From Dictyophora rubrovolvata (lineage: Eukaryota > Basidiomycota > Agaricomycetes > Phallales > Phallaceae), in contig CP114118.1 of NCBI GenBank assembly GCA_029959195.1, positions 2,754,001 to 2,818,000 on the forward strand: DNA of 64,000 nucleotides, in the 5' to 3' direction. Of the stretch, positions 39,030 through 64,000 are shown one piece after another (the first letter of the stretch is position 1; the number at the start of each line of letters is the position of its first letter). The notes under the pieces are model-generated. The model searched no databases and had not been told where the DNA came from. It worked only from the letters and a program-made list of their open reading frames with translations. A program made the position numbers and the translations under genes.

Positions 39030-39505
39030 GTATCCGAGTCATCAGATATATTATTTGACATGGATCATACGTTAGTTCTGTTCTAATATAACCTTTGTCG
39101 ATTATCTATCTTACGCGACGCCGGAGGTTGTCCATTATTCCTCAGGAATTACGGGTACAACCTGGGGCTCAATTGATTCGCTATATGTCCGGGCAGGTAT
39201 GGCTATCCCCTAGCGCATCATCTTCGGAAGTGTCGTTGTTTCAGGCTATGCCTGTCATACCGGGTGTCACGAATATTATAGTAATACATAGCAGAGTATC
39301 CATGAGTGGAAAAACGAGGGTCTATAGGTCTTGAGCGGAAGGTGATTCATGACGGGATGAGGGGATTGATAATCTCCGAAATCATTTGATATATCCTTAC
39401 AAATGGATCAGATCATATTCTCAGCTCTATTGATACGGCTGCTGTCAGTTATCTATCATACATATAACACGAGACTATTTACTGATTGCTTATTGTACAT
39501 CTGAA

Positions 39506-40780
39506 TCACTGATTTTGACGGTTGAACGTAGCGAGCAAGTCGTTAAGCGCGTTGATTGACTTGTCGCACGCGGCGAGCGACTCGGCCATCGTATCGGCTG
39601 ATTCTTGAAGCTTGACAGCTATCTCCTCAATCCCATCGAAGTCAACAACTGGCCCAACTAGCTCCCGGAGCCGAGGAAGTGAGTTTTTAAGCGTGCGAGT
39701 ATCCTCATTGGCCCCAGTGGTGTCAGGGAGGGACTCTATGTACGAGTTAAGGGACTCCGTGTACGAGGTACATGACTCCTTGTACCTAGCAGTTGTCTCC
39801 TTAAGTTTTAAAGTTGACGCGTCAAAGACAACAAGCGAGATTGACTCGCCGACCGTCGTCATTGAATCAATGATTGATTCGCCGAATTTGACAGTTGACC
39901 GGCCGAACTCGATGAGTGTCCAGCTGAGTTTGATAGTTGTCATAGAGTGTTTGAAAACGAAATCCCCCAATGTGACATCCGACTCATTGACCAAACCGAG
40001 CTTGATAGTTGGCCAATTGAGTGCGGTGATCCACTCGCTGAACTTGGCAGTTGCCTCGGCGCATTCGACAGTTGATCCCTTCAGCTCGGCAGTGGATTTC
40101 CTGACCTCGACAGTTGACTCTTTAACTGCAGCGAGCTTGACATTGAAGTCGTCAAGCGCGGTGATTGACTTGGTGTAAGCGACGACCGAATCGCCGAACG
40201 CGTTGAGGGACTTGGTGAACGTATCGAATGATTTTTCAAGCTCGACACCCATCTCCTCAATCGCATCGAAGTCGACAGCTGACTTGATAAGCTCCCTGAG
40301 CCGAGAAGCTTCGGACTCGTCAAGCGCATGAACGCTCTCGTCGAGCCCGGTGGGGTTCAAATATGCGAGGGACTCAGTGTGCCTCGTCCGTGACTCATCG
40401 TACCTTGTAAATGATTCCCTGTACCTAGCAGTTGTCTCCCCAAGCTTTAAAGGTAACGTGTCAAACGCAACGAGCGAGATTGAATCACTGTCCCGAACAG
40501 TTGATTCGCCGAATTTGACACTTAACCGGCCAAACTCGATCATTGACCGGCTGATTTTGATAGCTGACATAAAGTATTTGACAGCTAAATCCCCGGATGT
40601 GACAGCTGGCCCACTGACCAAACCGAGCTTGAGAGTTGGCCAATTGAGTGCGGTGACCCACTCGCTGAGCTTGGCAGCTGCCTCAGCGAGTTCGAGAGTG
40701 GATACCCTCAGCTCGGCAGTGAATCTCCCGAGCTTGACAGTCGACTCTTTAAATGCAGCGAGCTTGGCATTAAAGTCTTC
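39506..40780 (-). repeat. two tandem ~630-650 nt coding modules inside the coiled-coil gene
   Basis: Module 1 (40,780-40,154) and module 2 (40,153-39,506) align along their length. Both contain nearly identical stretches such as GGCCAATTGAGTGCGGTGA at about 40,640 and 40,011. Nucleotide similarity is high enough to suggest a recent in-frame duplication. The distal copy at 60.8 kb has only one module. Confidence 0.75.
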
Positions 40781-41236
40781 ATGATCAACACTGGGGTCAC
40801 TCGGTTGGACATTCTGTACTGAGTTTGAACCAATGAACCTTGACGTCTCAATCGTAGGTTGGCTTGCATAACTGATAACGGTCGACTGCGAATTCTGATG
40901 CAGATGGTTGGGATACGCTCCATGATCTCCATTACCAATGGCCCTGGCACCGAGACTGGAGTTTAATCCTATGAGATGGAAATTGTAGGTTACTTGGTGT
41001 ATGGCTGAATTCGCTACTTGAAATGTTTGGGATACATTAGGACCATCGGACGAGAGTGCACCTTGGTTTGGTTGCAACGTCTAATTAGCAGTGATTAACA
41101 TAGTGTAGAAAAAAGCAACAGATTTTGAAGTACAGACTTGGTTTGCAGTACCGCTTACAGACAGGATTTGTTGATTTTGGCCACGTTCTATACTTCGAAG
41201 TAACTGGGGGATCAGCTGGATTGGGTCGGAGGACAT
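39506..41236 (-). CDS. heptad-periodic coiled-coil protein with two tandem modules, family unknown
   Basis: Not recognised. Seen: exon 1 (41,236-41,138) starts MSSDPIQLIPQLLRSIERGQ; a 57-nt intron with GTCTGT donor leads to exon 2 (41,080-39,506), which starts TLQPNQGALSSDGPN. The N-terminal 100 residues are Asn/Gln/Ser-rich with a beta-prone patch (FQVANSAIHQVTYNFHLIG). The rest repeats a seven-residue pattern of small/polar and aliphatic residues, for example ESTVKLG-RFTAELR-VSTLELA, so it is predicted to be a long coiled coil. It is built from two modules of about 210 residues, each ending near SITALDD or SINALND. No signal peptide, transmembrane segment or catalytic motif. Total about 557 residues. 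The same N-terminus, intron position and C-terminus (FNRQNQ) recur in the distal copy at 60.8 kb. Confidence 0.65.
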
Positions 41237-41408
41237 GTTTGGGGTTTGTTAAGGTAGTACCGGGAAAGAGGAAGCGGGAGGAATAACCGGAACGTTAACG
41301 CTAACAGCGAGGGCTACAAGGACAAGCTTGGGTAGATAGTTGTCTTAGTGAAAGATTCGAATAGCGCGCGCCCAGGCACAGAAAGAGACCATGGCAAAGA
41401 CTTCCTAG

Positions 41409-41416
41409 TATAAATA
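41409..41416 (-). promoter_or_regulatory. probable TATA box of the coiled-coil gene, copy 1
   Basis: Minus strand reads TCTATTTATACTAGG, about 172 nt upstream of the ATG. The same block precedes the distal open copy but is missing from the interrupted third copy. Confidence 0.45.
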
Positions 41417-41962
41417 GACCAAAGCGTCTACCAGAACTTCGGTTCTTTAGCTTCCCATTGGACAACGCACTTGGCACACCTGGGAAGATAAAGGGAATAA
41501 AGCCAATTGGTTATGGACTTGGACGTAGCTTCGCTGGCAAGACTGGCGACAATTTTCCTAGTGCTTCATTTTTGAAAGTTGCTAAAGTTGCTGTTTGCTG
41601 CTGAGTGTCGTTGCTTCAGGCTGCGCCTTTTATAGCACGATTCTGAGACAAGCTGTCAGTAAGTAAACCCAGTAAAAATAATACCTGATCGCAGAAATTT
41701 CGACGGTGATTGTTGAGTCGAGACAGAGTTTGCAAGCGCCTGGAACATGTGCACAAACAAATGCACACCTCTCTCAAACAAGTTGAACTACAAAGTGCCC
41801 CTTGTACAGCAGAGTCTAAACACGTCGTATTAGACGACTTCACATAAAACATCCACCCTATATTATTACCACAGTAAACCAAAGCAAAAGGTAGTAGGAA
41901 AAGAAAAGAACGATGTTCCTCTTATGTTCCCCAGGAGATATATATACCCCAAACCAAGGTCA

Positions 41963-44411
41963 TTAGGCAAACCACCACAAAGTAGTAATCCCAACAGGAA
42001 AGGTAAAATTAGCCTACGAAAAAGAGCGCAAAGTTAGGGTTTTGTTTCAATATACATCTTTGAACTGACATGTTTATTTCTGAATCCAATCGTAGCTTCA
42101 ATCTATCTTAATGTCACATTTAACCTGACACGTTAGCGTGGATTTTTGGCTTACGGGCTGAGGGTCCCATTTATTATTTTTGGTATCTTTTGGAAAAACC
42201 GAAATAAGCTATATGGAAACTTTCCGTATCAACATACCTACCTTGCCTTTCAATGAAGTCAGAAAAGAAACAAAAAATCCACAGAATAATCGACTTGCCA
42301 ATTCAGGACAATAATTGCCCAGCGAGACGGATCCGAAGACCGAGCACGTCCAGTCTTATGGGCACCCACTCGCAATCCGGAATTCAGCTTCCCACCGACA
42401 GTCACGCCAATGCGTTGTCCAAAAGGTCCATTAGCGTCTTTTGGGATTATCGCTCGAGAAGCCTGTGCCATAGCATAATCTCCGGACATTAAGTCAGCAA
42501 TGCTGTAGCAGACTCTTTACATTGCTTACATTCTTCATTGAGAGTATAGGACCCTCCGGAAATGCTTGCAACTCCTCTGCAACCTCCTCCACAGCTCCCT
42601 GCCCCAGGCAGAATGGGATTCCCATTACTTTCCAATGCGAAATTCCACATCATAGCAGTCCGACTCCAATTTTCCGGTCCGCCGATGAACCTTTTAACAA
42701 AGACAATGACTTTTGAGCGAGCAAAAGAAAACCAGTCGAGTCTGACAGTCTTACAAGTTGTCCATATACCACTAAGTGGGGCGAAACGTTCTTATCATTT
42801 TAGATGAAACACGAAGACTGATCCACTTTTCACCTTTATATTACTCCACCAATCTGTACCCACTGTGCCGGTACACTCGGTGTGGTATATTTCTTTCGTC
42901 GGGAAAGCGTTATGGAACAAGGATTGATTCCTCACCGAGCCCGCATAGCAATGAAAGGAAACACCGTCAAAGGCGTTCTCGGCTTGTTGCATCTAAAAAT
43001 GCACTTAACGTTTTTCCATCTCTTCATAAATGAAACCACCTCACCAGCTGAATAGGGTAACCTCCGGCGTCATCCCAGTTATGTTCGTATCCGACGATCC
43101 TCACATCAGCAAATCCGTTGTTGTCCAGCAAACTCCTAATAAAAGATCAGTTGAACGCGCTTTCCGACCCATTTTGACGATATGAACCTCAATTGAAGAG
43201 CAACTTTCGCCTCTGTGCTGGCAGATACAAGAGCAGTCGGATACGTTGGATTGCTATTTTGAGGTTCGTTCTGTGGAAAAATGGCGTTGAACGACTCAAC
43301 GTCGTATATAGATACATGGAAGCCGCACTTGAATTCCTACGGCATACAATCGTATGCCTTTGTTTTGAAAAGCTTGAATTGCCTTTAACAAATAATTCGC
43401 CACTGCATGAAATTTTTCTTCAATTGAGAAAACTGACTTCTGTCTGTAGGCGGCTTACTTTCGGAAACGTTACTTGTATCGAAGCTTCCTCCTAGCATAG
43501 TATTACTATTTTTCATCCATCCAGGCTGAAAATATGACGTTAAAAACTGCACTTGAACAAATCAAAGATATCTTAACAAACGCTACTCCATGGTACTGCA
43601 AAACATTTGATGCGGGGAAAAATAGACTTGATGTCCGCAAGAATTGTCCAGACATCGCTGGGAACACTACTAGTAGTAAAGCTTTTCAGAAGTGTATCCT
43701 TTGAAGTGTCGTCCCAGCTATAGACTTTATTACTTGTATTTAACGAAATTAGAAAGAGTTTGAGGCCGTGACAAACCTTTCGAGGAGAAGTCGGTTGATC
43801 CGATTGGTACGCGTACAACGGATAGTCCAGCACCCGCAGAACCGTACGTGGCTGTCATAGAAGGTCATAACCAGGTTTTTGTAGTACGCGCAGGTAGTGA
43901 CTTACTGTTGAACAATTGATCCATGAGCTTCCAATAATTGGTAGGATTTTGGCTCTGTATTCGACGGAATCAGTCATACGGCAGAAAAGATGTTCAGTCA
44001 AACGTGGACAAGGCACCTTGAGTTGGTTCAATAATTTTGCTGACGAATCCGCTGTTATGTAACAAAAACAACGAACAAGAACAAATGAGTTGTCAGCAAC
44101 TGAAAAGAATCAGAAAAAAATACTTAATGAAGCTCCGAAACCATCCATGTTTTGGAAGGTTTGGTCATCTTCAATGACAATGCTAGCTTGTCCTATCGGA
44201 CCGGGTGAGTGAAAATTAATAGGGAGTTGGTCGTTGACTGGCTGGCGGGTCATAAGTTTTGAGCGGTCCCACGTTGTTTGCCACTGAATGAAATTAGGCG
44301 TCGCTTTATCATCCTTAGAAAAAGTGGGGTACTTACTACATCCCAAATCTGTTGGGAGACAACAGAGCTTATCAACGGTAACAAGCATAAAACTGATGTG
44401 AAAGAGCGCAT
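41963..44411 (-). CDS. secreted GH30 glycoside hydrolase (beta-1,6-glucanase type), downstream copy
   Basis: GH30 retaining enzyme; fungal relatives are endo-beta-1,6-glucanases acting on fungal cell-wall glucan. Seen: ATG at 44411 gives a signal peptide (MRSFTSVLCLLPLISSVVSQ) followed by QIWD. Then come WQTTWDRSKL, VIEDDQTFQNMDGFGAS, VYSWDDTSKDT, VPWSS joined to PGWMK, GIQNEPQNSNPTYPT with the acid/base Glu in NEP, IVGYEHNWDD, DGVSFHCYAG and HTECTGTVGTDWW with the nucleophile Glu in TECTG. The C-terminal beta-domain has SRWAIIVLNW and ends FPVGITTLWWFA before TAA at 41963. More than ten introns, all GT-AG where checked. Tandem with a second GH30 1.4 kb upstream on the same strand. No carbohydrate-binding module seen. 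Confidence 0.85.
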
Positions 44412-45799
44412 ATTGCACGATTTTTGTGCGAAAAAGAAGGTGAAAGGAACGGAAGTTTGAAAGAGTGTGTTAGTTAGAGGTAGCACAAAAAGGGAGAAAG
44501 GAGATATTTATATCATCGACTTTCGGGGATAGAGATTAGGCCCCATTAACGGGGACCATGATCTGACTTTTTCGAAAACACGCTCTATGCAGGCCGTACC
44601 CCTACCTTTTTGTCATATGCACGGATTAACATTCACTCTACCACATTTCGGTCGCCTCGGCGAGCCAATGGCATCAAATTGTATCCAGAAAAATTGGGAT
44701 GACTCGGAATTACGTGCCCTTGCTGAAATCGAACGGCAGAGTTTGAGCCGGGCGTTGACAAACTGTCGGAGAAGTATTCATGAGAGACGTAAGAAATAGG
44801 CGGAAGTACATCCACGCACTCGTTATTATTACATACGACCATGTCGATACATACAGATATGTACCCGAATATAAATAGGCCGTCCAGGGTCCTTTTGCAG
44901 GGTAGCCTAGATTCTGCCTCAAATAATCAAATACATAAGTACAACTTCTAGTTCACTTCGTCCCACAATAATAGGATGTAGGCTTTCGAGATTGTCTTTT
45001 GCTAACAGCCAATCAAAATTAAACTTGAAATCGACTGTTTCCGCTGTTTGACTGAACCTTTTCTTATTGAAAGTGGCACTGCTGCGGGTCTCAAAGATAA
45101 AGTATGGAAAATAGAACGCTCACTGTGGCGTTCGGGCCCATTTTCTTGGCGTCGGCTTTGAAATGGATCCGACAGAAGTTCAAACCTGCATGCGGCAGCG
45201 TCTATCCTTTCATGTGCTCAAGCTTGGAAGTCCTAAACAGTATCAATCGCGAGTCTGATATTATAGTTCGAAGGCGAAACTTTAGTTTTATATTAGGAAT
45301 TTTCACGCTGTTTTTAAACTTCCGCCGTGTTCGAATAGCAATTTCTCAAGGAAGCTTTAGGTTGGTAATACGCCCAGGGTACACCGCAAATGATTCATGA
45401 ATCGTAATCGAGGGGTCGCGGGTGAAGACTTCTAATTGGGCTTCGATGCCGCTTTGATACACATGTATTTGCTGTTATTTCGACGGAACGAGTTCCGGAT
45501 ACACACTCAGCAACCGCTCAAGAAGATAGCCGGTTAGGAATGGGTTGGAGTGCTTTGATAGCGGAAAGGTAACCCAGATTTGTAAGTTAAAAAAGAAAGG
45601 TCTATAAATTGTAAAAAATGCAGTTAGAAAAGGCTAGAAATAATCATGAATGCTGACCATATTATCATTATCAATCATTTAAATCAAAACAAATTAACCT
45701 AAAGCAATGCAAGCGGAAAAATCTATCCAAACAGAGACAAAAAGATCATGAGGGGCCAGATGAAAGGAAGCCATTACAAGTCTAAGGGTCTGGGTTGCA
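44412..45799. other. intergenic between the two GH30 genes
   Basis: About 1.4 kb. Contains a minus-strand TATA-like GATATAAATATC at 44,502-44,513, roughly 95 nt upstream of the downstream GH30 start. No gene recognised. Confidence 0.5.
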
Positions 45800-48223
45800 T
45801 TAGGCAAACCACCATAAGGTGGTCACACCGACAGGGAAAGTAAACGAAGCCTGAAACAAGAAAGGGGTTCCAATAGTGAGCCCCATTCTAGGCAACTTCA
45901 AAAGGTATCAAAGCTAACCTGTTGGCCTCTGAACTCGATTGTAGCCGAAACCTGCGTAGAGACCATCATTGAGACGACTAGTAATCGCGTCATGCTTGGG
46001 AGCGAACTCACCGGTTGAGGATCCCACGCGCCATTATTATTGTCTGAAAAAAAACGTGAATTTTCACTTTGAGATCAAACACACTTGCTTACCTTGCCTG
46101 AAAGCAATGCCACGTGAACATAAGAAGCATAAACGATGATTTATATATTACGTACCAATTTAACACAACTAAACCCCAGCGATTGGGGTCGGAAGGATTA
46201 GCACGTCCAGCAGTGTAGGCACCAACCACTAAAGCCCAGTTCAGGTTACCGTTAACAGTTACACCAATACGTTGAGCAAAGGGTGCGCCGGATTCCTTCG
46301 GAATCACAATACGGGAGGTTTGGGCCATTACATAATCTACGAGGCTCAATCACTGAGGAAAAAAGGCCGAAAAAAAGAAAGGGACTCTCACATTCTTCAT
46401 TAACACTGTATTGGCCGTTGGAAATAGTCACAACACCTCGACAACCCCCTCCGCAACTGTCGCTGCCAGAAAGAATGGGATCGCCGTTAGGATCAAGCGC
46501 TAAATTCCACATCATAGCCGTCCGACCCCAATTCTGTGGACTTCCAACTAGTCTGTCAACATGTCAACCCGTAGAGTAAGAATAATCGGGACAATGTAAA
46601 TTAAGGTTTGAATCTCACAGGTTATCCATATACCACTGAATAGAAGGTTTGTTAACTTGTTAAGGAATAATATTGACATGAATTGCCTTGATATTGCTCC
46701 ACCAATCGGTTCCGAGAGTTCCGGTACATTCAGTTTGGAAGATGTCCTTCTCAGGATACAGGTTATGAAAGAGTGACTGATTTGTGACCCCCCCTGCGTA
46801 GCAATGGAATGAGACACCATCAAAAGCGCTACTGGCGGCTTCCATCTATTGAAAGCATTACAATTCGTGGTGAAAAACAATTGAAAGATATGGTATTTCA
46901 CCAGTTGAACGGGGTATAGGCCGGCATCATTCCAGTTATGTTCATAACCAACGATTTTGACGCTTGAGAAACCGTTGTCATTGAGCAGAGTTCTGCGTTT
47001 TTGTCAAGTGAGAGGTGGTTTAGCTGCGCTCGTGAGATACTAACCTGAGCTGAAGTCCGATTTGCGCCTCGAGGCTAGCCGAGATTAGTGCCGTGGGGTA
47101 AGTAGAGTCGCTATTTTGAGGCTCGTTCTGTCATCCACGTGCATTAGGGATGGTTAGTAGAAATTAAATCATGATGTATACAGCATACCTGAATCCCAAT
47201 GGCGTATGGAGTAATACCTCTGACATAGAGAGCTTGGACAGATTTCAACAAGTAATTAGCCACTGTAATGATGTCGATGACAAAACTACATAGGAGCGAG
47301 AGACCTTCTTACGGATGGAAACGTCATTGGATTCAAGGCTGCCTCCTAACAAACTACCGCTAGATTTCATCCAAGCTGGCTGATATCGGTTAGGTTTGTT
47401 TCGTGTCATCAGTGCCGGACAACCTACCATACTCCAGGGAAGCACGAAAACCTTGACAATGGGTGATATAGACATAATATCACTGAGCGTCGACCAGACA
47501 TAACCAGGGACTGCATTGGTGGAAAAAGCGGATAGAGTCGTGTCATCCCGTGTATCGTCCCAGCTGTAAGCTTCCAAAGTGTTGGTTGGCAATAGATTCT
47601 TTATGAGGAACATTACCTGTGGCTGAAAAATCTGTCGCGCCGATCGGGAGTCGTAAGGCAGTAAGACCCGCCCCTGCGAAGCCGTAGGTGACTAAAAATA
47701 ATCTAGATGCAAAACTTTAATCCTAAGATTAGTGGGCACCCACCGTTGAACAGTTCGTTCAATAGATTCCAGTAATTTCCGGAGTTTTGAGACTAGTCAA
47801 TATTTTAGATTCTATTGATAAGCGACGTCGATCATACGAAAATATCACCTTGAGTTGACTGAGGAGCAAGGCAGAAGAGTCCGCTTTAATGATACAAAGA
47901 TGAAAACCAAGGCAGACAAAGAGTCAGTTTCAAGGACTCACTTAGTGTCGCTCCGAAACCGTCCATTGATTGGAATACTTGGGTGTCTTCAACCACGATG
48001 TCTGCTGACCCAGCAGGTCCCGGAGTACCGAAGTTGATAGGAAGCCCGTCGTTTGTTGGCCATTGAGTGAAGAGTTTCTCCCTGTCCCAAGTTGTTTGCC
48101 ACTGAAAACCTATCAAGTTGTGTCGGCGAAAGACGAGATAATACGAACAATGTCCCAAATCTGCTGGGAAGCTACAGAAACGACGAGTAAAAGGAAATAT
48201 AAAGAAGCAGTAAAGGAGCGCAT
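45800..48223 (-). CDS. secreted GH30 glycoside hydrolase (beta-1,6-glucanase type), upstream copy
   Basis: Tandem paralogue of the GH30 gene at 42-44.4 kb, same orientation and nearly the same intron layout. Seen: ATG at 48223 gives the signal peptide MRSFTASLYFLLLVVSVASQ. Then WQTTWDREKL, VVEDTQVFQSMDGFGAT, YSWDD-like AYSWDDTRDDTTLSAF, LPWSM joined to PAWMKSSGSLLGGS, NEPQNSDSTYPTAL (acid/base Glu), IVGYEHNWNDAG, FDGVSFHCYAGG and QTECTGTLGTDWW (nucleophile Glu), SGSDSCGGGCRGVV, VMAQTSRIVIPKESGAPFAQ, and a C-terminus FPVGVTTLWWFA with TAA at 45800. A TATATATATA stretch lies about 40 nt upstream. Both key glutamates are present, so it is predicted active. Confidence 0.87.
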
Positions 48224-48945
48224 GGTTTGGATTAATTAATGGTAGAAAGAAAAGGAAGGTTGTATATATATACCTGCCATTCCAAAAAGGAAATCTTGAA
48301 CTGAATCAAGGCAATGCTAGGGGCCAGAGCGCCAACGATACGATATTTTTGAGCGAGGAGATATTGGCTGGCATATAGGACTTGGATTAGATAGGAGTAG
48401 CTGCTTATTCTTGCCACTATTCCATGGAAACAGATAATCTTGACAGAACACCTGACCTAACGCCCATACGTTATAAAAACAACAATTACTGAATTTTGAA
48501 GGGCGCCGCATGGCAAAACCAAATCCGTGTCTTGATCATTGCATCGACACGACTCCCATTACGAATCACATGCAAAGGTATTGGCTACTGCCAAGGTTAT
48601 AAGGTCTTCCTTTCTATGAACGTTCCAGCATGAAAAGTTTATCAGGAATGAAAATATTCCTAGAGGTTGGTTTCCCTGACAGTGCGAACGGATCGAAAAA
48701 AAAGGTGTTGCAGGCTACCCGATTGATCTGTCACGCTAGTCACGCGTTGTGGCCAAATTGTGGCGCTCCCTTCAGGAGTTTTCAAAATTTCAAAATAGCC
48801 CACGCAGTTATTTGCTGAATTTGTTCTGGTACGTTTTCTTCCCGACATAACAATCATCTATCTCCTAGTGCTTCAGGCTTTTCCAAGACCTTACGAAACC
48901 TCCATGGTCACCCGCTGGCATTTTCTTCGGAGATATTGATTCCTC
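48224..48945. other. intergenic upstream of the GH30 pair
   Basis: Promoter of the upstream GH30 gene, with TATA-like sequence at about 48,260. Nothing else supported. Confidence 0.5.
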
Positions 48946-49232
48946 ATGTTTTTAAATAAAAACTATCATATTGGCCAATGCTATCACATGGATCGGCGTT
49001 CCATCCAAATGAACGCCATTGTTCCTTGTTTGATAGATCTTTCGAGGGCAAAAGCGGATGGCGGATGGCCTACATGGGATGACATAAAGACAGGAAACGA
49101 CCGAGTGAGAAGCTTGTGAGTATATTTAGCTTAGTTTTCAAGTAAGCTGACTGAACTGATTTTACCGATAGGTTTCTTATACACCAAGTTGGGATGGCTT
49201 CAACTCCTGCTATTTCACGGACATTGGGTTAG
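48946..49232 (+). CDS. possible 76-residue spliced gene or gene remnant
   Basis: Seen: ATG at 48946 gives MFLNKNYHIGQCYHMDRRSI, continuing LIDLSRAKADGGWPTWDDIK. A GTGAGT donor at 49116 and a CGATAG acceptor ending at 49171 join, in phase, to FLIHQVGMASTPAISRTLG and TAG at 49232. The composition and well-formed intron look like real protein-coding sequence, not chance. There is no recognised domain and the surroundings are non-coding. It may be a small gene, or one surviving piece of a larger decayed gene. Confidence 0.3.
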
Positions 49233-53539: not shown

Positions 53540-56500
53540 ATGTCTGCTCCACAGTTAAATAGTCCTCCGATAAATATAAGCATTCAACCCGACGAAAGAT
53601 TCCCTGCTAGCCCTTGGAACGAATACGACACTGACTGGAAATTCCCTACCGAACCTGACATGGACAATCCAAATTCTAACACCTACACACCGAGTTATGG
53701 CTCATTCAATTCCATCGGTTCACGTTCCCCCTCCTGGGGTGGTCGAGAAGCCGAAGATCCCATGAATCTTTACGAGAACGATGACATGTTCGAACTGTCT
53801 GCTCACTCAAATCGTCGCCACCAAACAGACTATAATCCGGCCCACTACGACGGCAACATTGTTGGCGACATGGATGGTATGGAGGACATTCCTTCTGTTT
53901 CATTGCAGGCTGCCGGGGGTCTCAACCTACCACCCCCATCGTCCATGCAACAACACAACAGCTACTCTCCCACCTCAAACGATGGTTCTCCTTCCTCATC
54001 TCGCTCGAGGGCATCATCCACATCTTCAATGTATCATTCGGTGCCATCACCGCCGAAAACTGTATATCCTTCCTCGTTGACAAATCATAATCCGCCACTT
54101 AGCGGAGCCAAGACCCAATCTCCTCCGGCGCTCGTTATACCAGACGACGTTCAACAACAAGGACAAATACAACGCGGAGGACTTCAACATCACCAACAAC
54201 AACAGAATCCGATGAGTATCAATATTGTGCCAAGTACCCCCGTCGGAGGGTTGGGCGACCCTAAAGGTAATGAAAAAAAAACAGCGCCGTCTCCTTCCTT
54301 TATTTCTGTTTTCTGACTAAGGCCCTGACTCCTTTTAAGATCATGTGTTTCCGCAACCATCAAACTCAGGTGCTGCTCAGGAAACTTGGCAAACTCACTC
54401 TCGACACTCATCCTCCGAGTTACCTTTCAGTTTTACCCAACACCGATCTCCAGCTTTATCCGCCACCTCATCTCTTCATAACAGCCCATTACCTCCTTCG
54501 AGTTCTCTGCCGAATATAGGCATGATGGGTGGCATGGAAAGCACTACGCCTCTCATACCTCCCCATTCTCTTCACAACTCCCCATTGCTTCACTCCATAC
54601 CGATACCTCCTTCATCTTCTTCCCCTATACCCTCTGCATCCCCCGCCGCCCTATCTCTTCACAATTCGCCTCTACTCCAAGGGTCGTACAACAATAGCCA
54701 TAATTCTTCCTCTGCACGTAATTCCCCAGTCCCATCCTTCAGAGGTGCCCCGACACATACTCGCGCAACGTCGGACGACTTCCTTCTCCCTGAGTCAGCC
54801 GCGCACCAACGACCTCGATCTGTTAGCTGGGGAGAACACAATGCACCTAGCATTGGCGTCACGTCTACATCATCCGGTGGATCATTAGGCCTAAATTTCC
54901 TCAGCGGTCCACCTCCTAGAGGCATGTATCCATCATCCATGGATGTCCCATCTTCAGCGTTCGGCGAAAACTCTTCAACATTGAACGACCTTCTTCAACC
55001 ACCTTCTGGGTCTTCTTTCGGGCGCGACAGTTCGTCGTGCGCGTTCCGACGCGGGCAGTGCTCATCGTAAAATTAAGAGCGAGGATCTGCGCGACTATTT
55101 CGGTAATGGTGGTGGTGGAGGTGGCGGTGGTGGGTCATCCGACAGTGGCGGTGCCTACCGCGTCGACAGCCTTTCAGTACCGTCACCATCACTGGGGTCG
55201 GCTAATATATCCATTAGCCCAAGCGGTTCCATCAGCCCCGCTCCAGGACGATCTCCCTATTTGGGGCACCGTACATCATCGAGTCTTTCTAATCCTATCG
55301 GACATACTGTCGGTAGTAGTCATCGGAGCAGCCACTCGATTGGAAGTTCTGCCGGGTTCCACTCGCAGCGCTCGAGTCCGTATCCTAGTCCACATGCCAG
55401 CCCGAGCATTAGAGGTTCTGCGCTGTCTAATGACGTTGATGGTGGCTTTGGCAGTGGCGGTTACGGAAGTGGCATGAACTATTCGAATGGACTGTTGGGC
55501 ATTCCTGGTGGTCCTCCGTATGGTGGTGGCGGTGGCGGCGGTGGTGGAGGCCCACCGTCAATGCAACCGCAATCTGGAATGGGAATTGGGTTAGCCAATC
55601 TAAGCATCAGTGGAAGCCACGGGATGAATAATAATAATAACATAATGGGCGGTGGTGCGGATACTTCACTCAACCCGCCGAAGAAACTCGTTACGACTAA
55701 GGCGACACATGACGCTAGCACGGCACGGAGAAAGAATGACGCGGCATTTATATGTCCTGTACCGGGATGTGGAAGTACTTTTACTAGAAGTTTCAATTTG
55801 AAGGGTGAGTGGGGTATTGCTTCTGGCTTTTTGCTGCTCTTTACTTGATTATGACTGTCTCTAACTTGTTTTCAGGTCACATGCGTTCGCATAACGAGGA
55901 AAGACCATTCAAATGCAAATGGCCTGGCTGTGAAAAGGGCTTTGCAAGACAGCATGATTGTAAACGGCATGAGGCTTTACATCTCAATATCCGGCCGTAT
56001 ACGTGTACTGGTTGCAAGAAGACATTTGCTCGCATGGACGCTCTTAATCGACATCGTGAGTTCTGTTCTGATTGATCGCCCTTTCCTCCTCTTGCTTTCG
56101 TTCTTCTTCTTTCTTGGACATGCTTTTTCTTTTTAATTTATTCATTTTCGAACTGTTTTCATGAGATTGCTATGTACACCCGAGGAGGAGGGGTTTCCTA
56201 TGAACCTCTTCTCTTTATCTACATTAAGATGAAATACCATCTTTTTTTAATTATTTATCCCTGATTCTTTTTCTCTTTCAATCGGCTTATCGCAAACCCT
56301 CTACTTACCTCAGTTCGCTCTGAAGGCGGAGCCGAGTGTCTAGGACACGATCCAGGAGCCGGAAATAATCTCAGTCCGAACGCCCCGAATTCAACACCGT
56401 CACCAATGCATGGGATATCGCCTTATGCGGAAGACAAAGAGTTGAAGTATGATCCTGATTATGGCCCGACGAGGTCTGGTGCCGGCGGTGGTGGGAGGGG

Positions 56501-56639
56501 TGCAAATGGGATGCACCAGAATGGTGGAGGTGGTGGTGGTGGTCATGGGAGAAATGATGATGGTATGATGACACGAGGACGACCACATCATAATGCGGGA
56601 CAAACTCAAGGGCAGGAGATGGATGGTTTGATTATGTAG
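53540..56639 (+). CDS. CRZ1: CRZ1/SP1-like C2H2 transcription factor (calcineurin-responsive type)
   Basis: In fungi Crz1 is dephosphorylated by calcineurin and enters the nucleus to activate calcium and cell-wall stress genes. Seen: ATG at 53540; long disordered Ser/Pro/His/Gln-rich N-terminus with repeated LHNSPL motifs; Gly-rich tracts; then three fingers. Finger 1 is CPVPGCGSTFTRSFNLK joined to GHMRSH, finger 2 is CKWPGCEKGFARQHDCKRHE, and finger 3 is CTGCKKTFARMDALNRH, continued after a 256-nt intron by LRSEGGAECL, giving a CCHC finger as in Crz1. TAG ends at 56639. The reading frame changes between 54,985 and 55,068. A 49-nt GT-AG intron (55,010-55,058) would join PSG to AHRKIKSED; a real frameshift is the alternative, because the skipped frame reads RRARSDAGSAHRK. 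Calcineurin docking motifs were not identified with certainty. Confidence 0.82.
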
Positions 56640-59600
56640 GCAGGGTGGGACGAGGCCGGCGCCGGGGGGATTTGACCTTGATTCCTATCCCCTAACTCCC
56701 CTTATACTTTCGAACAACTCGGGTTTGTCTTTTGAAGGTTGTTAATACCCTACTACTACTACCACCATTAACTGTCATTGCTGTATCTCTCCGACCCGGA
56801 CCTTCGAACTCCACAGGCTAGCCTTCGTACCCTAACGACTAGGGCTTACAATTGCCTTCTACGATGATGCATTCTTTATGAACACGAATGTCATAGGTGC
56901 TTCCAACTATGTTTCTCTCCCTTACATCAATCAACCTCCGATTTTATCCATCTATCCCTGCTTTCACTCCTACCCCGACGGTCATCAATTGCCCGTGATT
57001 GATATACATAAACCACAACTTAACCCTTACCCGGAGCCCCTTACCATGCTGTGTTCTCTCAACGAGGCACTTTCGGGCTTTTCGCTCTACTCGCCCTTCT
57101 CGTTCCACACACAACTAAACTTCCTCAACCCATTCTTTTCCGCCATAATGATGTCCCTTTTCCTCCCTCCACGGTGATTCGCGAACACTTGCGTCCGGTC
57201 TCCGTGTATGTCCGCGCATGCCTCATGGTGTTTCTATTGTTTATATCCTTTTCTATTATGTGCCGCCGCTCTGTCTCTGTCCCTGTCCCTGTCTTTGTCT
57301 TTGTCTTTGTCTCTGTTGCAAGGGTTCTGGCAGTTTACGTTTTGAATCTGTACATATTCCTTCGGGATGAGACAGGTTCTCTCCTGCGATTTTTTCCATT
57401 GCTCTCGCCGGTTGCTTTCTGGTCTTTTTTTTCCTCGGCCGTTGACTATTCTTCTTCTTCTTCTTCTGCTGTCTGTTTTGCTTTTATGGAGGCCTACGTC
57501 TTATATTGGGTCGCATTTTCGCGTTTATATTGGTATTTGTTCGTCTTTATTAACTTTCCGCTTCTTTTTTTTTTTTCACGCGTACGGACAAAAAATACTG
57601 CCGGGTGTTTTCTACTCTGCGTGCCGATTTCATATACTTGCTCCGTTCTTTGTTCATCTTTTTGTCTTATGTCCCGATTTATAGTAAATTTCTTTCCTTA
57701 AATGTTGTTTCTATATTATACAAATACGTATTTCTTTTTCCGCGCTAGTACATACATTTCAAGTCTGCAGGACTACTATATACCTATCTTTCTTTTGATA
57801 AATAGTTCTGATTTATCGCTCAGCTTTTTGTTATATTTACTCCGCGGAAAGGAATTCTTATTTAGTGTATCGGTTATACAACTTTCTAGTTTATTGACAT
57901 GACAATCTGATATGTGATTATATGGGTGAATCGGCCGTTAGAGGTATTTGTACTGTAAATGCATCCCAGGTAAACTTATATATGTACATATTCATCAATC
58001 CTCATTCGATCCGAGCATTCTCCACTAATAGATTTGTGCACCTCCTAATATTCTTATTCTCATTTGTTTCAATCTTTTTTAGTGATGAGTTTTCATCTCT
58101 GTTCGGTTTTTTTCCGAATTGTTCCTTTTCATTGGCAATTGGCTGAGGAAAGAAAAAAAAATTTTTTTTCTTTAATTTGATCAGGTTTGCTCATCACATC
58201 TACTACCAGTGGTAGATAATTGGGCGAAAAAAATGGAAGCCTCTTTTAATCGTGTGAGGTGGATACCGCTTTCCTGTGCATCCCCACATGCATGCGCTTT
58301 TGCCCATTATGTCATAATATATCAACGACTCGGTAGGGTAGGTAATAAGTTTGACTCGATTCCGGAACACCGGCGAGCAACACAATTTCAACTCGCGATT
58401 TGTCAAACGTATTGATTGAACAGTATATAAGATGATTTGTCGAAGGATCGCTGTATCTTTGGGTTATCAGATTCTTCGGGCCTTCACCGAGTATCTCCCA
58501 CGTATGGAAACTTTTCTTTGATTGAATCAATTTAGGATTTGTGAGCCTGATTACCAGATCCATCATTATCAATGAGCGCGCGGTTGTTAGCCTGGGATGC
58601 TAATTGATTATATATAGATGTTATGAGATGACTGGGACGACACAGCCTACATAAGTTGACAATGATGCACTAATAATAATGACACAATGACGTGCCAGAT
58701 TGATTGGAAACGTAGATTGGCTGACTGAAATCGGATCCGGATTTCTTGTTGCTGGCATGTTTAATGGCTCAGTAGCGTTGTTCCATCTACTGTCTGGGAT
58801 GGTAATGATTGATTTAGCAACGGTATCTGGTATACATCTGACTGCGTTTGCATATATCTGTGATAAGCTTGAAGTTTACGCGTTATACATTAGTTACGGT
58901 GATGATCGATGATCGTGAGGTAGAAGCGAGTTGCAGTCTCGAATCTCTGAATGAGATTTGTCTTTGCCTTGGCTAACATGACGCCTATTGTAAAAACGGG
59001 ATTTATCGGTTTCACAGAACTTACAAAAAAATAAACAGCTGTACAGACGAAAAGTCCACAGTTGCAGAGCAACGTTCGGAAAAAATTAGGGAAAAAAAAA
59101 AGTAAGAAGAAAAACACGTAGCAGACTGAGAGTAGTCTGAATTGAGTTTTCATATGCAATGTGCCGCAAATTGCACTCAAGAACGAAGACGGTATATCAT
59201 CATCAAGTTTCGCGACTGCTTGCAACTCCTCGTGCGTCCTTCCGCTGGTCTGGTCGGTCCTCGAACTGTGCACAACAACGAGCAGGTATAAGGGATAACT
59301 TCAAGACAGCGCCCGAGAGATCGACCTCCTTTCGACTAGATATTACAGGGTATGTATGTATTTACCATTCGTCGGCGATTAAAGCACGTCCCGTTGCCTA
59401 CGGGCCAGTCCATCGGCAGCTTTTCTCTCTAACACTTCAAAAGTTGAAAGAGAGTGAGCTCTATACAAATCGATAGCCACCCGATTTGCAGCGACAAGAA
59501 AATTGGTCGCATGGACGTCGATAGAGTTTTCTGGCATAAAAAAAAACCAGTGCGAAGCAGTCGAGATCCTGATAGATGAAAAGTTCGTCCGTCTACGGTT

Positions 59601-60284
59601 TGATCTCCGCGATGTTTTCCCAAACAACAAGTTAGCTTGTGATCATCCTCATTTCATAGATTGAAAATCAACGGACGGCTTTTGAGAGCGAAAACTAGCC
59701 GTTGTGTCGTTTCTGGTGCATCGCTTGATTAAGTTGTCATCGGATCCAGCTAGGATCAGTCTGCCAAAGGGAGATTATAATACTCAGACCTTACCCACTC
59801 GTTACGATGGACGAACATGGTCAAAAAATGCAAGTCATCCTTGTGCTGAACGAGTGTTGCGGCCTTCAAACTGCTACGTGCTGGTGAAAGGAAGAGAGTT
59901 TGACGCCCGGGCGCGGAACCTTTTAAAACATTCACAATTCGGTGAAACTTCGGATGGAAAATAATGTATCGCCGTTGGTCTTCCAGGTTCTTGCTGGTCT
60001 CTGGGGAAATCGACCAGTCCAGCTAAACCCTAAACCAAAAAAAGGACGCCTTACATTCAAGAACGTAGTGTTCATGCAGTCTTTATTTTTTCGCACATAT
60101 CTACTACCAGCTCAAGGCGCGTGTGTCTTCACGTTTGACTGAACGTCTTTTCGGTGGAAGGACTGATTTCGTCGAGTACAGAACCAAAATTCTACCAATT
60201 ATTGGAAGCTCATGAACTATGTGTTCAACCGTTGATCATTTCTCGCGTATGGGCATGGGCATACGAAAACCTGATCAGGTGTGT
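56640..60284. other. gene-poor region downstream of CRZ1-like gene
   Basis: About 3.6 kb. The first 1.5 kb is T/C-rich and is probably 3' UTR plus spacer. A 216-residue plus-strand frame at 57,051-57,701 arises from this composition and is not called. Weakly coding-like minus-strand frames at 59,130-59,630 could be a decayed gene, but no family is recognised. Confidence 0.45.
57269..57316. repeat. CTGTCT/CTGTCC hexamer minisatellite
   Basis: About eight imperfect copies of a pyrimidine-rich hexamer (CTGTCT, CTGTCC, TTGTCT variants) in the 3' region of the CRZ1-like gene. Confidence 0.8.
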
Positions 60285-60627
60285 TTCTGGAGCCTGCCGT
60301 CGCTGTCACGGTCTCAACAATCATGGTTTCAACAATCACCGTCGAAATTCCTGCGATCAGGTATTGATTTGTTGACAGCTCGTCTAGTTGGTTAGAATCG
60401 TGCTATACAAGGCGCAACCCGAAGCAGCGACACTCAACAGCAAAACAGCAACTTCAGTAACTTTCACAAATGAAGCTCACTAGGAAAATTGTCGCCAGTC
60501 TTGCCGGCGAAGCCACGTCCAAGTCCATAACGAATTGGGTTTAGTCACTTAATTTTCCCAGGTGTGCAAAGTGCGTTGTCCAATGGGAAGCTAAGAACCA
60601 AAGTTCAAGTAGACGCTTTGCCAGGTC

Positions 60628-60635
60628 TATTTATA
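60628..60635 (+). promoter_or_regulatory. probable TATA box of the coiled-coil gene, copy 2
   Basis: TCTATTTATACTAGG about 160 nt upstream of the ATG, matching copy 1 in sequence and spacing. Confidence 0.45.
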
Positions 60636-60794
60636 CTAGGAAGTCTTTGCCATGATCTCTTTCTGTGCCTGCGCACGCCTCTAGTCTCCCACAAAGACAA
60701 CCGTCCACCCAGGCTTGTCTTTGTAGCCCTCGTCGTCAGCGTTAACTTTCTGGCTATATCCTCAGCTTCCTCTTTCCCGGTACAAACCCTAAAC

Positions 60795-61910
60795 ATGTCC
60801 TCCGACCTATCCCAGCTGATTTCCCAGCTGCTTCGAACAGAAAATGGGCAAAATCCACAAATCCTGTCTGTAAACGGTTCTGCAAACCAAGTATGTACTT
60901 CAAAATCAGTTGCTGCTTTTTTCTACACTTTGTTAATCACTGCCAATTAGACGCCGCAACCAAACGCCGGTGCACTCTCGTCCGATGGTCCCAACGTATC
61001 CCAAAGAATTCAAGTAGCGAATTCAAACATACACCAAGTCAACTACAGTTTTCATTTCATAGGAAACCCCAACCTCGGTGCCAGTGCCATTGCCAATGGA
61101 GATCATGGAGCGTATCCCAATCATCAGGATTCGACTGCTATCAGTTATGCAAGCCAATCTACGATTGAAACGGCAAAGTTCATTGGTTCAAACTCTGTAC
61201 AGAATGTCCAACCGAGTGGCCACAGTACTGATCAGGTAAATTCAGACTTCAGCGCCAAGCTCGCTGCAGTCAAAAAGTCAGCTGCCGAGGTCGAGAAGTC
61301 CACTGCTGAGCTGGAGGGATCAACTGTCGAACTCGCTGAGGTAACCGACAAGCTCAGCGAGTCAGTCACCGCACTCAATTGCTCAACTTTCAAACTCGGT
61401 GTGGTCAGTGGGCCAGCCTCTGCCGAATTGGATTCAACAGTCCAATTCTGTATGACCATTATCTCATTCAGCCGGTCGATTATCAATTTCGGCCGGTTAA
61501 GTGTCAGCAGAGGCGAATCAATCGTTCAGAACAGTGATTCAATGACTACTGTCGCCGAGTCAATCTCGCTCGTTGTGTTTGACACGTCAACCGTAGACCT
61601 TGGGGATACAGCTGCCAGGTACAAGCAGGCATGTACCGATTACTTGGGGTCCCTCGCCAGTTTCGGTGACAGCAAGTGGCTCTACGACTGTTCTCACACG
61701 CTTGAGGAGTCAACTCTGGGCCGTCTCAAGGGGGTTTTCGGGCCAGTTGTCGAGCTCGATGCGATTGGGAAGATAGCTGGCAAGCTTGGAAAATCAACCA
61801 ATACGTTCGACAAGTCACTCGCCGCGTTCGGCGCGTCGGTCATTGCTTACAGAAAATCAATCGCCGCGCTTGACGACTTACTCGCTGCGTTCAACCGTCA
61901 AAATCAGTGA
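60795..61910 (+). CDS. heptad-periodic coiled-coil protein, single module, family unknown
   Basis: Paralogue of the minus-strand gene at 39.5-41.2 kb. Seen: exon 1 (60,795-60,890) reads MSSDLSQLISQLLRTENGQN and ends at a GTATGT donor. Exon 2 begins at 60,951 with TPQPNAGALSSDGPN and stays open to TGA at 61,910, ending LLAAFNRQNQ. About 351 residues. Conserved with copy 1: the N/Q-rich N-terminus with QVANSNIHQVNYSFHFIGN, the heptads (VKKSAAEVEKSTAELEGSTV), and the C-terminal DDLLAAFNRQNQ. It carries one coiled-coil module where copy 1 has two. The protein frame is kept while flanks have diverged, which suggests selection on the product. Function unknown; a structural or scaffold role would be a guess. 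Confidence 0.65.
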
Positions 61911-62604
61911 TTCAGATGTATGATAAGTAAATAGTCTCTTGTGTTACATGTATGATAGATAACTGACAGCAGCTGTATCAATAGAGCTGAGAATATGATC
62001 TCATCCCGGGCCGTTTGTAAGGATATATCAAATAATTTCGGAGATTATGAACCCCCTCATCCCGTCATGAGGACCTCTCGTTCAAGACCTAGAGACCCTC
62101 ATTAACTCGTAGATACTCTGCTATGTATTACTATATTCGCGATACGTGGTATGACAGGCGTAACCTACCAAAATAGCGAAGGGTCGGGGAGACGCTTAAT
62201 GTGATTATTATATGTACTTAAAAACCTCACCACGCCAATGCGAGTTAGAGCTCAGTTAACTGGAACGCTTCCTCGCGTCGTGGTCCCGGCCGTCGAATGA
62301 TGGTCTCGTGTAACATGTTTCACTCCCGGCACCCACAAATTTGGATTCTCCAAGCAATCCCATTGAAGCCAGCGAGTCAAGTGACAAGCTCAGGAGTCAG
62401 GTATCCAGGAGTTAACTATCACTCTTTACGGGACAATTGTCGAATCGCTCACCGGGTTTGTCCTACTCAGCTCAGTGGGTCAACAGATAATGGACAACCT
62501 CCGCTGTCGTGTAGGATGATATGACAAATGTTATATTAGGTCGGACTAAGAACATGATCCGTATCCAAATTAATAAGACCACAAGGACACGTCTCTAAAT
62601 AAAA

Positions 62605-62900
62605 TAGTAAGCACCTCGCCGATGTCATTTTGCTGTTGAAGTATCATAACCTCTATCTTATCCTTAAGTTCGTCAAAAAAGTCAAGGATACCTGATAGTT
62701 GTGCATTCAGAGTATTTTGACAAGCCAATTTAATTGCGAGAATATCATCCTTGCAAGATCGGATAATGATAATTTGGAAACAGTCTCATCCAGCTAATTG
62801 AATGATAGCGATAGATCCTTCCGGTTCGATTATTATACTATGTAGTAACTCGGCAGTGAACAAATACTAATAATCCCAACTCTGAGTAAGTACTGCTCGC
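62605..62900 (-). pseudogene. decayed intron-containing fragment of ATG17
   Basis: Read on the minus strand, this segment matches ATG17 at 37,425-37,745, including the introns on both sides of the DEILAIKLACQNTLN exon. Shared words include CTCGCAATTAAATT, GCTTGTCAAAA, GGTATCCTTGACT and CAGCAAAATGACAT, with small insertions and deletions between them. Retained introns mean it came from genomic duplication, not from reverse-transcribed mRNA. It cannot encode a functional ATG17, since most of the gene is absent and the frame is disturbed. It sits between coiled-coil repeat units 2 and 3 and, relative to unit 2, has the same inverted orientation that the real ATG17 has relative to unit 1. Confidence 0.82.
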
Positions 62901-62949
62901 AAATATGTCGCAAAAATCTCAACGCCCTAATTTATTATGCGAACTGATC

Positions 62950-64000
62950 AAGACTTTAAGAAGAGGATGTTTTATGTGAAATCATATAGTACTGACGTGT
63001 TTGAACTTTGAACTCTGCTGTACAAGGGGCAATTTGTAGTTGTTTGCCGCAGGAGGTGTGCCTTTGTTTGTGCACGTGTATTCCCGGAGCCTGCAAACAC
63101 CGTCACGGTCTCGACAATCGTGGCTTCAACAATCGCCGTCGAAATTTCTACGATCAGGTATTGTTTTTGCTGGGTTTGGCAGCTCGTCCAGTTGGTTAGG
63201 ACTCAGAATGGTGCTATAAAATGCGCAGCCTGAAGCACCATACTCAACAAAACAGCAACTTTGACAACTTTCAAAAATGAAGCACACTAGGAAAATTGTA
63301 GCTAGTCTTGTTAGCGAAGCCACGTCCAAGTCCATAACCAATTAGGGTTTATTTACTTGATTTTCCCAGGTGTAGAAAGTGCGTTGTCCAATGGGAAGTT
63401 AGAGAGTAGACGCTTCGGTCTAGAAAGTCTCTGCCATGATCTCTTTCTGTGCCTGCGCGCGCCATTCGAGTCTCTCACCAGGACAACTACCTACCCAAGC
63501 TTGTCTTTGTAGCCCTCGCCGTTAACGTTGGCTTTCTGCTTCTTCCTTCCTGGTACCACCTTAACAAACCCTAAATATGTCCTCTGACCTATCCCAGCTG
63601 ATCTCCCAGCTACGTCGAATAGAACATGGGCAAAATCCACAAATCCTGTCTGTAAGCAGTACCACAAACCAAGTCTGTACTTCAAAATCAGTTGCCCTTT
63701 TTCTACACTATGTTGATTACTTAATTAGACGTTCCAATCAAACCAAGGTGCACTCTCGTCCGGTGGTCCCAACGTATCACAAAGATTTCAAGTAGCGAAT
63801 TCGAACATACACCAAGTAACCTACAATTTCCATCTCATAGGAAACTCCAACCTCGGTTCTAGGGCCATTACTAATGGAGATCATGGAGCGTATCTCAATC
63901 ATCAGGATTCGCAGTCGGCTGTTATCAGTTATGCAAGCCGATCTATGATTGAGGCGTAAGTTCATTGGTTCAAATTCTTTACAGAATGTCCAACCGAGTG
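62950..64000 (+). repeat. coiled-coil gene repeat unit, copy 3 (runs off window)
   Basis: Begins with GGATGTTTTATGTGAAATCA near 62,965, matching the outer 5' flank of copy 1, and continues through the shared 5' flank into the gene. Compared with the other two units it lacks the TCTATTTATACTA block, reading CGGTCTAGAAAGTCTC instead. The window ends inside it. Confidence 0.7.
63577..64000 (+). pseudogene. coiled-coil family copy 3, interrupted (partial)
   Basis: Seen: exon 1 (63,577-63,672) reads MSSDLSQLISQLRRIEHGQN; intron with GTCTGT donor and TTAATTAG acceptor; exon 2 from 63,729 starts TFQSNQGALSSGGPN and keeps the patch FQVANSNIHQVTYNFHLIGN. A TAA at 63,957-63,959 then closes the frame at the point where copy 2 reads IETAKFIG, while homology to the other copies continues to the window end. 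Together with the missing TATA block this suggests a non-functional copy. The rest lies outside the window, so a shorter expressed N-terminal product is not excluded. Confidence 0.6.

What the first reader, a model, noticed from the sequence alone, without database searches (positions are those of the whole stretch)
39030..64000. Unrecognised three-copy coiled-coil gene family carried in a ~2.3-2.8 kb repeat unit
Three units (39.0-41.9 kb minus; 60.3-62.6 kb plus; 62.95 kb to the end, plus) share 5' flank, a TATA block (lost in unit 3), a two-exon gene and, for the two complete units, a 3' flank. The protein starts MSSD.., has an Asn/Gln-rich N-terminus, then a long heptad-periodic region and a conserved FNRQNQ end. 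It matches no family I know. Two copies have open frames although their flanks have diverged.
Basis: partly seen in the sequence, partly recalled or inferred. Interest (0 to 1): 0.75.

Follow-up and report, generated by a model that had tools for sequence, protein, structure and literature searches.

The report
Young fungal coiled-coil gene family
A fungal chromosome carries four neighbouring copies of a gene with no catalogued protein family found, joining a segment also seen at the end of zinc-finger-like genes to a helical domain grown from a repeated 21-letter DNA unit, and at least two copies look like working genes whose protein sequence is changing unusually fast.

Summary
The assembly (28.2 Mb, 11 contigs; fungal by gene content, organism unidentified) has four copies; the fourth lies just past the window. 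All found are on contig C2. Copy 1 is the likely founder locus: decayed pieces of the ATG17-like gene beside copy 1 also lie 3' of copies 2 and 4. The N-terminal domain, with its intron, is homologous to the C-terminal tail of two zinc-finger-like genes 66-79 kb away, so the gene is chimeric. The coil domain is an amplified 21-bp (heptad) repeat. Five coil domains hold no stop codon where a neutral simulation gives about 13; 39 of 43 pairwise coil gaps are multiples of three against 26 of 84 and 9 of 30 in the flanks; tree-based omega is 1.56-1.63 and stays above 1 in the three leave-one-out tests run, but pairwise estimates do not differ from 1. Frame constraint is well supported, positive selection moderately. 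Copies 3 and 4 share a 2-nt deletion that makes a stop and a GTAAGT donor; removing 52 nt would restore the frame: possible, untested intron birth. Function is inferred only: most likely an intracellular coiled-coil adaptor, perhaps partnering the zinc-finger-like proteins.

The parts
39506..41236 (-). Copy 1 gene: exon 1 41236-41138, intron 1 41137-41081 (57 nt, donor GTCTGT), exon 2 41080-39506; 557 aa; two tandem coil domains
   Evidence: Open frame after one splice; internal duplication 76%; coil halves meet at 40150/40151
41237..41854 (-). Copy 1 leader (5' flank) shared with copies 3 and 4, in part with copy 2
   Evidence: Leader alignment, 83-90% identity over six pairs
39193..39505 (-). 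Copy 1 3' flank; holds a 31-bp stretch resembling the unit's own leader
   Evidence: leader-like stretch scores 37 against a maximum of 32 in 200 shuffles; copies 2, 3 and 4 do not exceed their shuffles
36799..38247 (+). ATG17-like gene (two ORFs of it), tail-to-tail with copy 1; fragments of 37419-37748 recur 3' of copies 2 and 4
   Evidence: Pfam ATG17_like: first ORF above cutoff (45.9 vs 43 bits), second below it (36.5 vs 43); duplicated fragments
60795..61910 (+). Copy 2 gene: exon 1 60795-60890, intron 1 60891-60950 (60 nt, donor GTATGT), exon 2 60951-61910; 351 aa
60276..60794 (+). Copy 2 leader
61911..62170 (+). Copy 2 3' flank
62599..62889 (-). Decayed fragment of the ATG17-like gene, between copies 2 and 3
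   Evidence: 77% to 37748-37452; interrupted frame
62963..63576 (+). Copy 3 leader
63577..64000 (+). Copy 3 gene, start (continues to C2:2818671): exon 1 63577-63672, intron 1 63673-63728 (56 nt), exon 2a 63729-63955, candidate new intron 63956-64007 (52 nt, ends 7 nt past the window)
   Evidence: splicing of the 52 nt is inferred

Best explanation
This is a young, local, protein-coding gene family. Seen in the sequence: a segment with a conserved intron, also present as the C-terminal tail of two zinc-finger-like genes on the same chromosome, forms the N-terminus of a separate gene whose remainder is a heptad coil built from a 21-bp repeat; copy 1 sits beside an ATG17-like gene, and pieces of that gene lie with copies 2 and 4. 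Supported statistically: the coil frame is under selection (no stops, in-frame gaps), while amino-acid changes accumulate at or above the neutral rate. Inferred: copies 2-4 came from the copy 1 locus by segmental duplication; the protein is an intracellular adaptor with a disordered N-terminus and a helical coil through which it oligomerises; the shared N/Q/S-rich module links it to the zinc-finger-like proteins, and changing coil surfaces alter partner choice among copies. Copies 3 and 4 may remain coding by splicing out a newly created 52-nt intron.
For: Zero stops in 5 of 5 coil domains against a mean of 12.9 in neutral simulation, 0 of 20,000 runs stop-free. Pairwise gaps that are multiples of 3: coil 39 of 43 (ten pairs of five domains), leader 26 of 84, 3' flank 9 of 30 (six pairs each; pairs overlap, so counts are not independent). 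Tree-based omega 1.56-1.63 for the coil, 2dlnL 9.1-11.1 over four codon models; 1.50-1.70 with 2dlnL 6.1-9.2 when copy 1a, 1b or 2 is left out. The excess persists in codons with a single change, 1.07-1.72 over ten pairs. N-module homology to the zinc-finger-like tail: 38% identity to copy 1, 25 invariant columns in 5 sequences; intron at the same place, with the same GTCTGTAC start as copies 1, 3 and 4; DNA match 68% over 204 bp, E 1.9e-9. 21-bp DNA autocorrelation 0.39-0.43 against about 0.25 at most other lags. Helices with pLDDT up to about 90 in a three-sequence AlphaFold2 model. ATG17 fragments 3' of copies 2 and 4, and pieces of the copy 1 5' flank upstream of copies 2 and 4.
Against: No transcript data. 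Only five coil sequences, and the second half of the domain is so divergent (mostly 40-80% between the main lineages) that alignment is uncertain; the first half alone is not significant for omega above 1. Pairwise counting gives coil omega 0.97-1.41 with every bootstrap interval including 1. Coil dS is also higher than flank divergence, so part of the divergence may be older paralogy or recombination between coil halves. Between copies 3 and 4 the coil (92%) is more conserved than leader (90%) and 3' flank (85%), unlike the other pairs, and their stop-free coil since their split has neutral probability 0.21. The 2-nt deletion of copies 3 and 4 lies between the N-domain and the coil, outside the gap counts, and is frame-breaking unless spliced out. 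N-domain omega, 0.81-0.85, does not differ from 1. Which gene family donated the shared module is unresolved. Function is inference.
Confidence: 0.6

Rival explanations
1. A dead or dying repeat array: all copies are pseudogenes of a former gene and the open frames are leftover.
For: Pairwise omega close to 1; copies 3 and 4 carry a frameshift and stop in exon 2 if the extra splice does not happen; copy 3 carries a recent insertion of about 705 bp at its end; a decayed coil relic with stops in all three frames lies beyond copy 4.
Against: Neutral decay would leave about 13 stops in the five coil domains; none is seen. Coil gaps keep frame, flank gaps do not. The relic shows what decay looks like here.
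Confidence: 0.15
2. A non-autonomous mobile element that carries the gene.
For: Several similar units in a neighbourhood that holds other mobile sequence: a transposon-like insertion and a LINE-like remnant recognised by eye.
Against: Units have no common ends; all copies found lie on one chromosome within about 30 kb; the duplicated stretch includes part of the adjacent ATG17-like gene.
Confidence: 0.04
3. A recognition or immune-type locus: the hypervariable coil proteins and the zinc-finger-like proteins are a matched pair joined by the shared N/Q-rich module, working like fungal receptor/effector pairs that share a motif.
For: Module shared between two gene families on one chromosome; coil omega above 1 on the tree; clustered copies.
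Against: No hit to a known fungal death or receptor domain in Pfam for exon 2 of copies 1 and 2 or the copy 2 N-domain; no NACHT or NB-ARC hit in the 18 other window ORFs scanned, a selection; no polymorphism data; no amyloid-motif search was run.
Confidence: 0.12
4. A secreted effector-like family.
For: Orphan, duplicated, fast-evolving.
Against: The MSSD start has no hydrophobic signal segment by eye; no signal-peptide program was run.
Confidence: 0.05

Closest known systems
Chimeric young genes formed by duplication plus fusion (for example Drosophila jingwei; recalled)
   Same: Segment with its intron shared with other genes, joined to other sequence, then duplicated
   Different: Here the rest of the protein is a repeat-born coil and the direction of module transfer is unresolved
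Fungal NLR/effector pairs with shared signalling motifs (HET-S/NWD2 type; basidiomycete motifs in PMC9815663, 12 of 24 passages seen)
   Same: A short N/Q-rich module shared by two gene families; one family fast evolving
   Different: No NLR, HeLo or Goodbye domain detected in the parts scanned; amyloid motifs not tested; the module sits on a zinc-finger-like protein
hnwd non-self recognition repeats of Podospora (PMC2873952, PMC1805685; listing and abstract starts only)
   Same: Internal repeats and rapid diversification in a fungal gene family
   Different: WD repeats there; degenerate heptads here
Intronization in fungi (PMC3629103, abstract and 12 of 19 passages)
   Same: Mutation creates splice signals inside an exon
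   Different: Here a frame-breaking deletion itself makes the donor and splicing would restore the frame. In that paper's table, of 59 intronization candidates with changed splice signals 1 was supported by transcripts, 50 disproved, 8 without data
ATG17-like coiled coils (Pfam PF04108)
   Same: Helical; the intact neighbour is one
   Different: Copy 1 exon 2 scores 13.7 bits against a cutoff of 43, copy 2 exon 2 has no match

Membership tests
ATG17_like (PF04108) | Score above Pfam gathering cutoff | tested here: not met
   13.7 vs 43 bits for copy 1 exon 2; copy 2 exon 2 no match
Transposable element | Common termini of copies | tested here: not met
   Ends of homology differ between pairs of units
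Transposable element | Dispersed copies | tested here: not met
   All copies found are on C2 within about 30 kb
Pseudogene array | Stops and frameshifts accumulate as under neutrality | tested here: not met
   0 stops in 5 coil domains, mean 12.9 expected; met locally in copies 3 and 4 if the 52 nt are not spliced
Diversifying gene family | omega significantly above 1 | tested here: inconclusive
   Tree model 1.56-1.63, significant; all ten pairwise intervals include 1; only five sequences
Chimeric gene sharing a module with zinc-finger-like genes | Homologous segment with intron at the same place | tested here: met
Coiled coil | 3.5-residue hydropathy period | tested here: inconclusive
   p 0.003, 0.0105 and below 0.0005 in domains 1a, 1b and 2; 0.097 and 0.059 in copies 3 and 4 (2000 shuffles each); phase effect p 0.0008 over the first 12 heptads
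Fungal death or NLR effector domains (HeLo, Goodbye, HET-s) | Pfam match | tested here: not met
   No such match at E <= 1 for exon 2 of copies 1 and 2 or for the copy 2 N-domain; copies 3 and 4 not scanned
Expressed gene | Spliced transcript | not testable with these tools
   No RNA data held

The most novel reading that the evidence does not exclude
A newborn recognition system caught in the making: a module shared with zinc-finger-like proteins, joined to a coil grown from a 21-bp repeat, has become a clustered family whose coil surfaces are driven apart by positive selection, with the two most similar (youngest) copies kept coding by an intron created by the very deletion that would have killed them.
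Probability: 0.12. Interest if true: 0.85.

Novelty: new variant of a known kind. Interest (0 to 1): 0.5.

Why it matters
It offers a compact case in which steps of gene birth can be read side by side: sharing of a coding segment with its intron, growth of a coil from a short DNA repeat, segmental duplication from a likely founder locus, decay of a relic, and rapid amino-acid change with the frame held. If transcripts confirm the 52-nt intron in copies 3 and 4, it would also be an example of a frameshift rescued by intron birth.

Tried and rejected
Pfam for exon 2 of copies 1 and 2, the copy 2 N-domain, zinc-finger-like pieces and 18 neighbouring ORFs: no family for the gene; the zinc-finger-like gene gave only a VPS13_N match below its cutoff (21.7 vs 80 bits). 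PDB sequence search of copy 2 exon 2: none. AlphaFold2 on copy 2 exon 2 alone gave mean pLDDT 36.9; with two further window sequences 54.7, residues 1-92 unreliable. Foldseek on that model: 0 of 668 matches at E <= 0.001; the best (4.9e-3) is a trypanosome haptoglobin-haemoglobin receptor, the rest shown are designed bundles, BAR-type and other helical proteins, not informative. Rfam at gathering scores: 0 matches in the window; ARAGORN, bacterial code: none. Search for the source of the 21-bp unit: 12 hits with up to 3 mismatches, 9 in the family's own region, 3 single sites elsewhere, 0 for the reversed control. Other frames of the coil: each has 2-28 stops per domain. Multi-nucleotide changes as the cause of omega above 1: not the whole cause. 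Leader-like sequence in the 3' flank: above shuffles only for copy 1; copies 3 and 4 equal the shuffle maximum and copy 2 is below it, so a second relic gene in every unit is not shown. tblastn found no coil relic 3' of copies 2 or 4 at E 0.01; the nucleotide profile found one 3' of copy 4, and only a weak E 0.58 hit 3' of copy 2.
Full report
What is there. The window is G000:C2:2754001-2818000 of a 28.2 Mb, 11-contig assembly; I take it for a fungus from its genes and introns, organism not identified. A DNA search with unit 2 finds four units, all on C2: copy 1 (minus), copies 2 and 3 (plus) and a fourth at about C2:2820.8-2823.5 kb, outside the window. Protein searches add no further full copy; these searches score only their best candidates. 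Gene models after one splice of 57 and 60 nt give 557 aa for copy 1 and 351 aa for copy 2. Copy 1 has its coil domain twice. Stretches beyond the window were fetched from the same assembly.

How the array arose. Units share flanks but no common ends. The piece at 62599-62889, 3' of copy 2, and another at C2:2823.54-2823.69 kb, 3' of copy 4, are decayed copies of parts of 37419-37748, which lies inside the ATG17-like gene that is tail-to-tail with copy 1; no such piece was found 3' of copy 3. The ATG17 frame is interrupted in the fragments. Short pieces matching the copy 1 5' flank at 43904-44027 and 42684-42813 lie upstream of copies 2 and 4. I read this as copy 1 sitting at the founder locus and the others arising by segmental duplication followed by deletions; this is inference from one genome. 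A coil relic with stops in all three frames lies beyond copy 4 (nhmmer E 6.4e-9 and 1.5e-5; translation).

The N-terminal domain is shared. A copy 1 search hit C2:2727516-2727674 at E 0.0025. Reading it showed the end of a larger gene with CxxC-type zinc-finger-like segments (my reading; Pfam gave no zinc-finger match), whose last intron starts GTCTGTAC, as in copies 1, 3 and 4 (copy 2 has GTATGTAC), and interrupts the protein at the same place (NQ|T). Alignment gives 38% identity to copy 1 and 25 columns invariant in five sequences; DNA similarity is 68% over 204 bp (E 1.9e-9). A paralog at 2714.5-2716.5 kb has the tail too; a third at 2582 kb instead ends in a different coil-like segment and gave no match to the tail. 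So the tail is a replaceable module. The third paralog suggests that the tail was gained in the pair, but whether it came from this family or went to it is open.

The coil domain. DNA autocorrelation peaks at 21, 42 and 63 bp in all five domains; the unit consensus encodes ESTVKLG. Hydropathy has a 3.5-residue period, significant in domains 1a, 1b and 2 and not quite in copies 3 and 4 (p 0.097, 0.059). Over the first 12 heptads variability shows no preference for a heptad position (p 0.81) although hydropathy does (p 0.0008). AlphaFold2 with three sequences predicts long helices, the best near pLDDT 90, and nothing reliable for the first 92 residues of exon 2; fold search is uninformative.

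Coding constraint. On the tree of five coil domains (178 ungapped codons, about 350 substitutions) a neutral simulation gives 12.9 stops on average and none of 20,000 runs is stop-free; the real domains have none. In frame-blind nucleotide alignments 39 of 43 pairwise coil gaps are multiples of three, the other four lying at the C-terminal end and involving copies 3 or 4; leader 26 of 84 and 3' flank 9 of 30. The same copies thus supply their own non-coding control. Pairs are not independent, and the N-domain and the linker that holds the 2-nt deletion of copies 3 and 4 were not part of the gap count.

Rate of amino-acid change. Pairwise counting gives coil omega 0.97-1.41, all ten intervals including 1; N-domain 0.58-0.71, intervals also including 1. 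Codon models on the tree give coil omega 1.56-1.63 (2dlnL 9.1-11.1), and 1.50-1.70 with 2dlnL 6.1-9.2 when copy 1b, 1a or 2 is left out (leaving out 3 or 4 was not run); the first half alone is not significant (1.37-1.47, 2dlnL 2.1-3.2), the second half is (1.65-1.76, 2dlnL 6.0-7.8); N-domain 0.81-0.85, not different from 1. The second half is also the hardest to align. Single-change codons keep an excess, 1.07-1.72. I take this as good evidence of absent amino-acid conservation with frame constraint, and moderate evidence of positive selection.

Copies 3 and 4. Both share a 2-nt deletion giving GAGGCGTAAGTTC: an in-frame TAA and a GTAAGT donor. Removing 52 nt to CCCCAG restores the frame in both and gives 328 and 334 aa; copy 4 has a second TAA inside that segment, in the coil frame, within CTAAC, a branch-point-like sequence (recalled consensus). 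GTAAGT occurs 33 times on both strands in 64 kb, so its presence exactly at the lesion is unlikely by chance, but a second frame-restoring AG exists at 43 nt, and splicing is unproven; in a fission yeast survey 50 of 59 such candidates with changed splice signals were disproved by transcripts and 1 supported (PMC3629103, passages). Copies 3 and 4 differ by two coil gaps, both multiples of three; absence of stops since their split alone has neutral probability 0.21. Copy 3 then took an element of about 705 bp with TGTCGC...GCGACA ends at its C-terminus; copies at two other loci are 100% identical, so it is recent.

Function. No transcript, localisation or interaction data exist here. The most likely reading is an intracellular oligomeric adaptor with a disordered N/Q/S-rich module. 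A link to the zinc-finger-like proteins through the shared module is a testable idea, not a result.

Noticed in passing
C2:2818644-2819348 (L010:6644-7348): Element of about 705 bp with TGTCGC...GCGACA ends at the end of copy 3; the search listed 40 matching pieces on ten contigs, two full-length ones elsewhere at 100% identity, so recently active.
   Followed up: partly
L010:7960-8350: Stretch between copies 3 and 4 that looks by eye like a decayed LINE C-terminal fragment (recognised from recall, no family search).
   Followed up: no
C2:2714.5-2730 kb and 2582-2584 kb: Three paralogs of a large zinc-finger-like gene (77% and 58% identical to the one at 2728 kb over a 298-aa stretch) with differing C-terminal tails; weaker matches at 2649.8 and 2652.2 kb and on C3.
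   Followed up: partly
window 41137-41081 and the same place in copies 2-4: A second in-frame donor (GTAAGC; GTAAAC in copy 2) lies 21 nt upstream of the GTMTGT donor of intron 1, so alternative splicing would add or drop seven residues.
   Followed up: no
window 62904-62916: Isolated TGTCGCAAAAATC match to the end of the 705-bp element.
   Followed up: no
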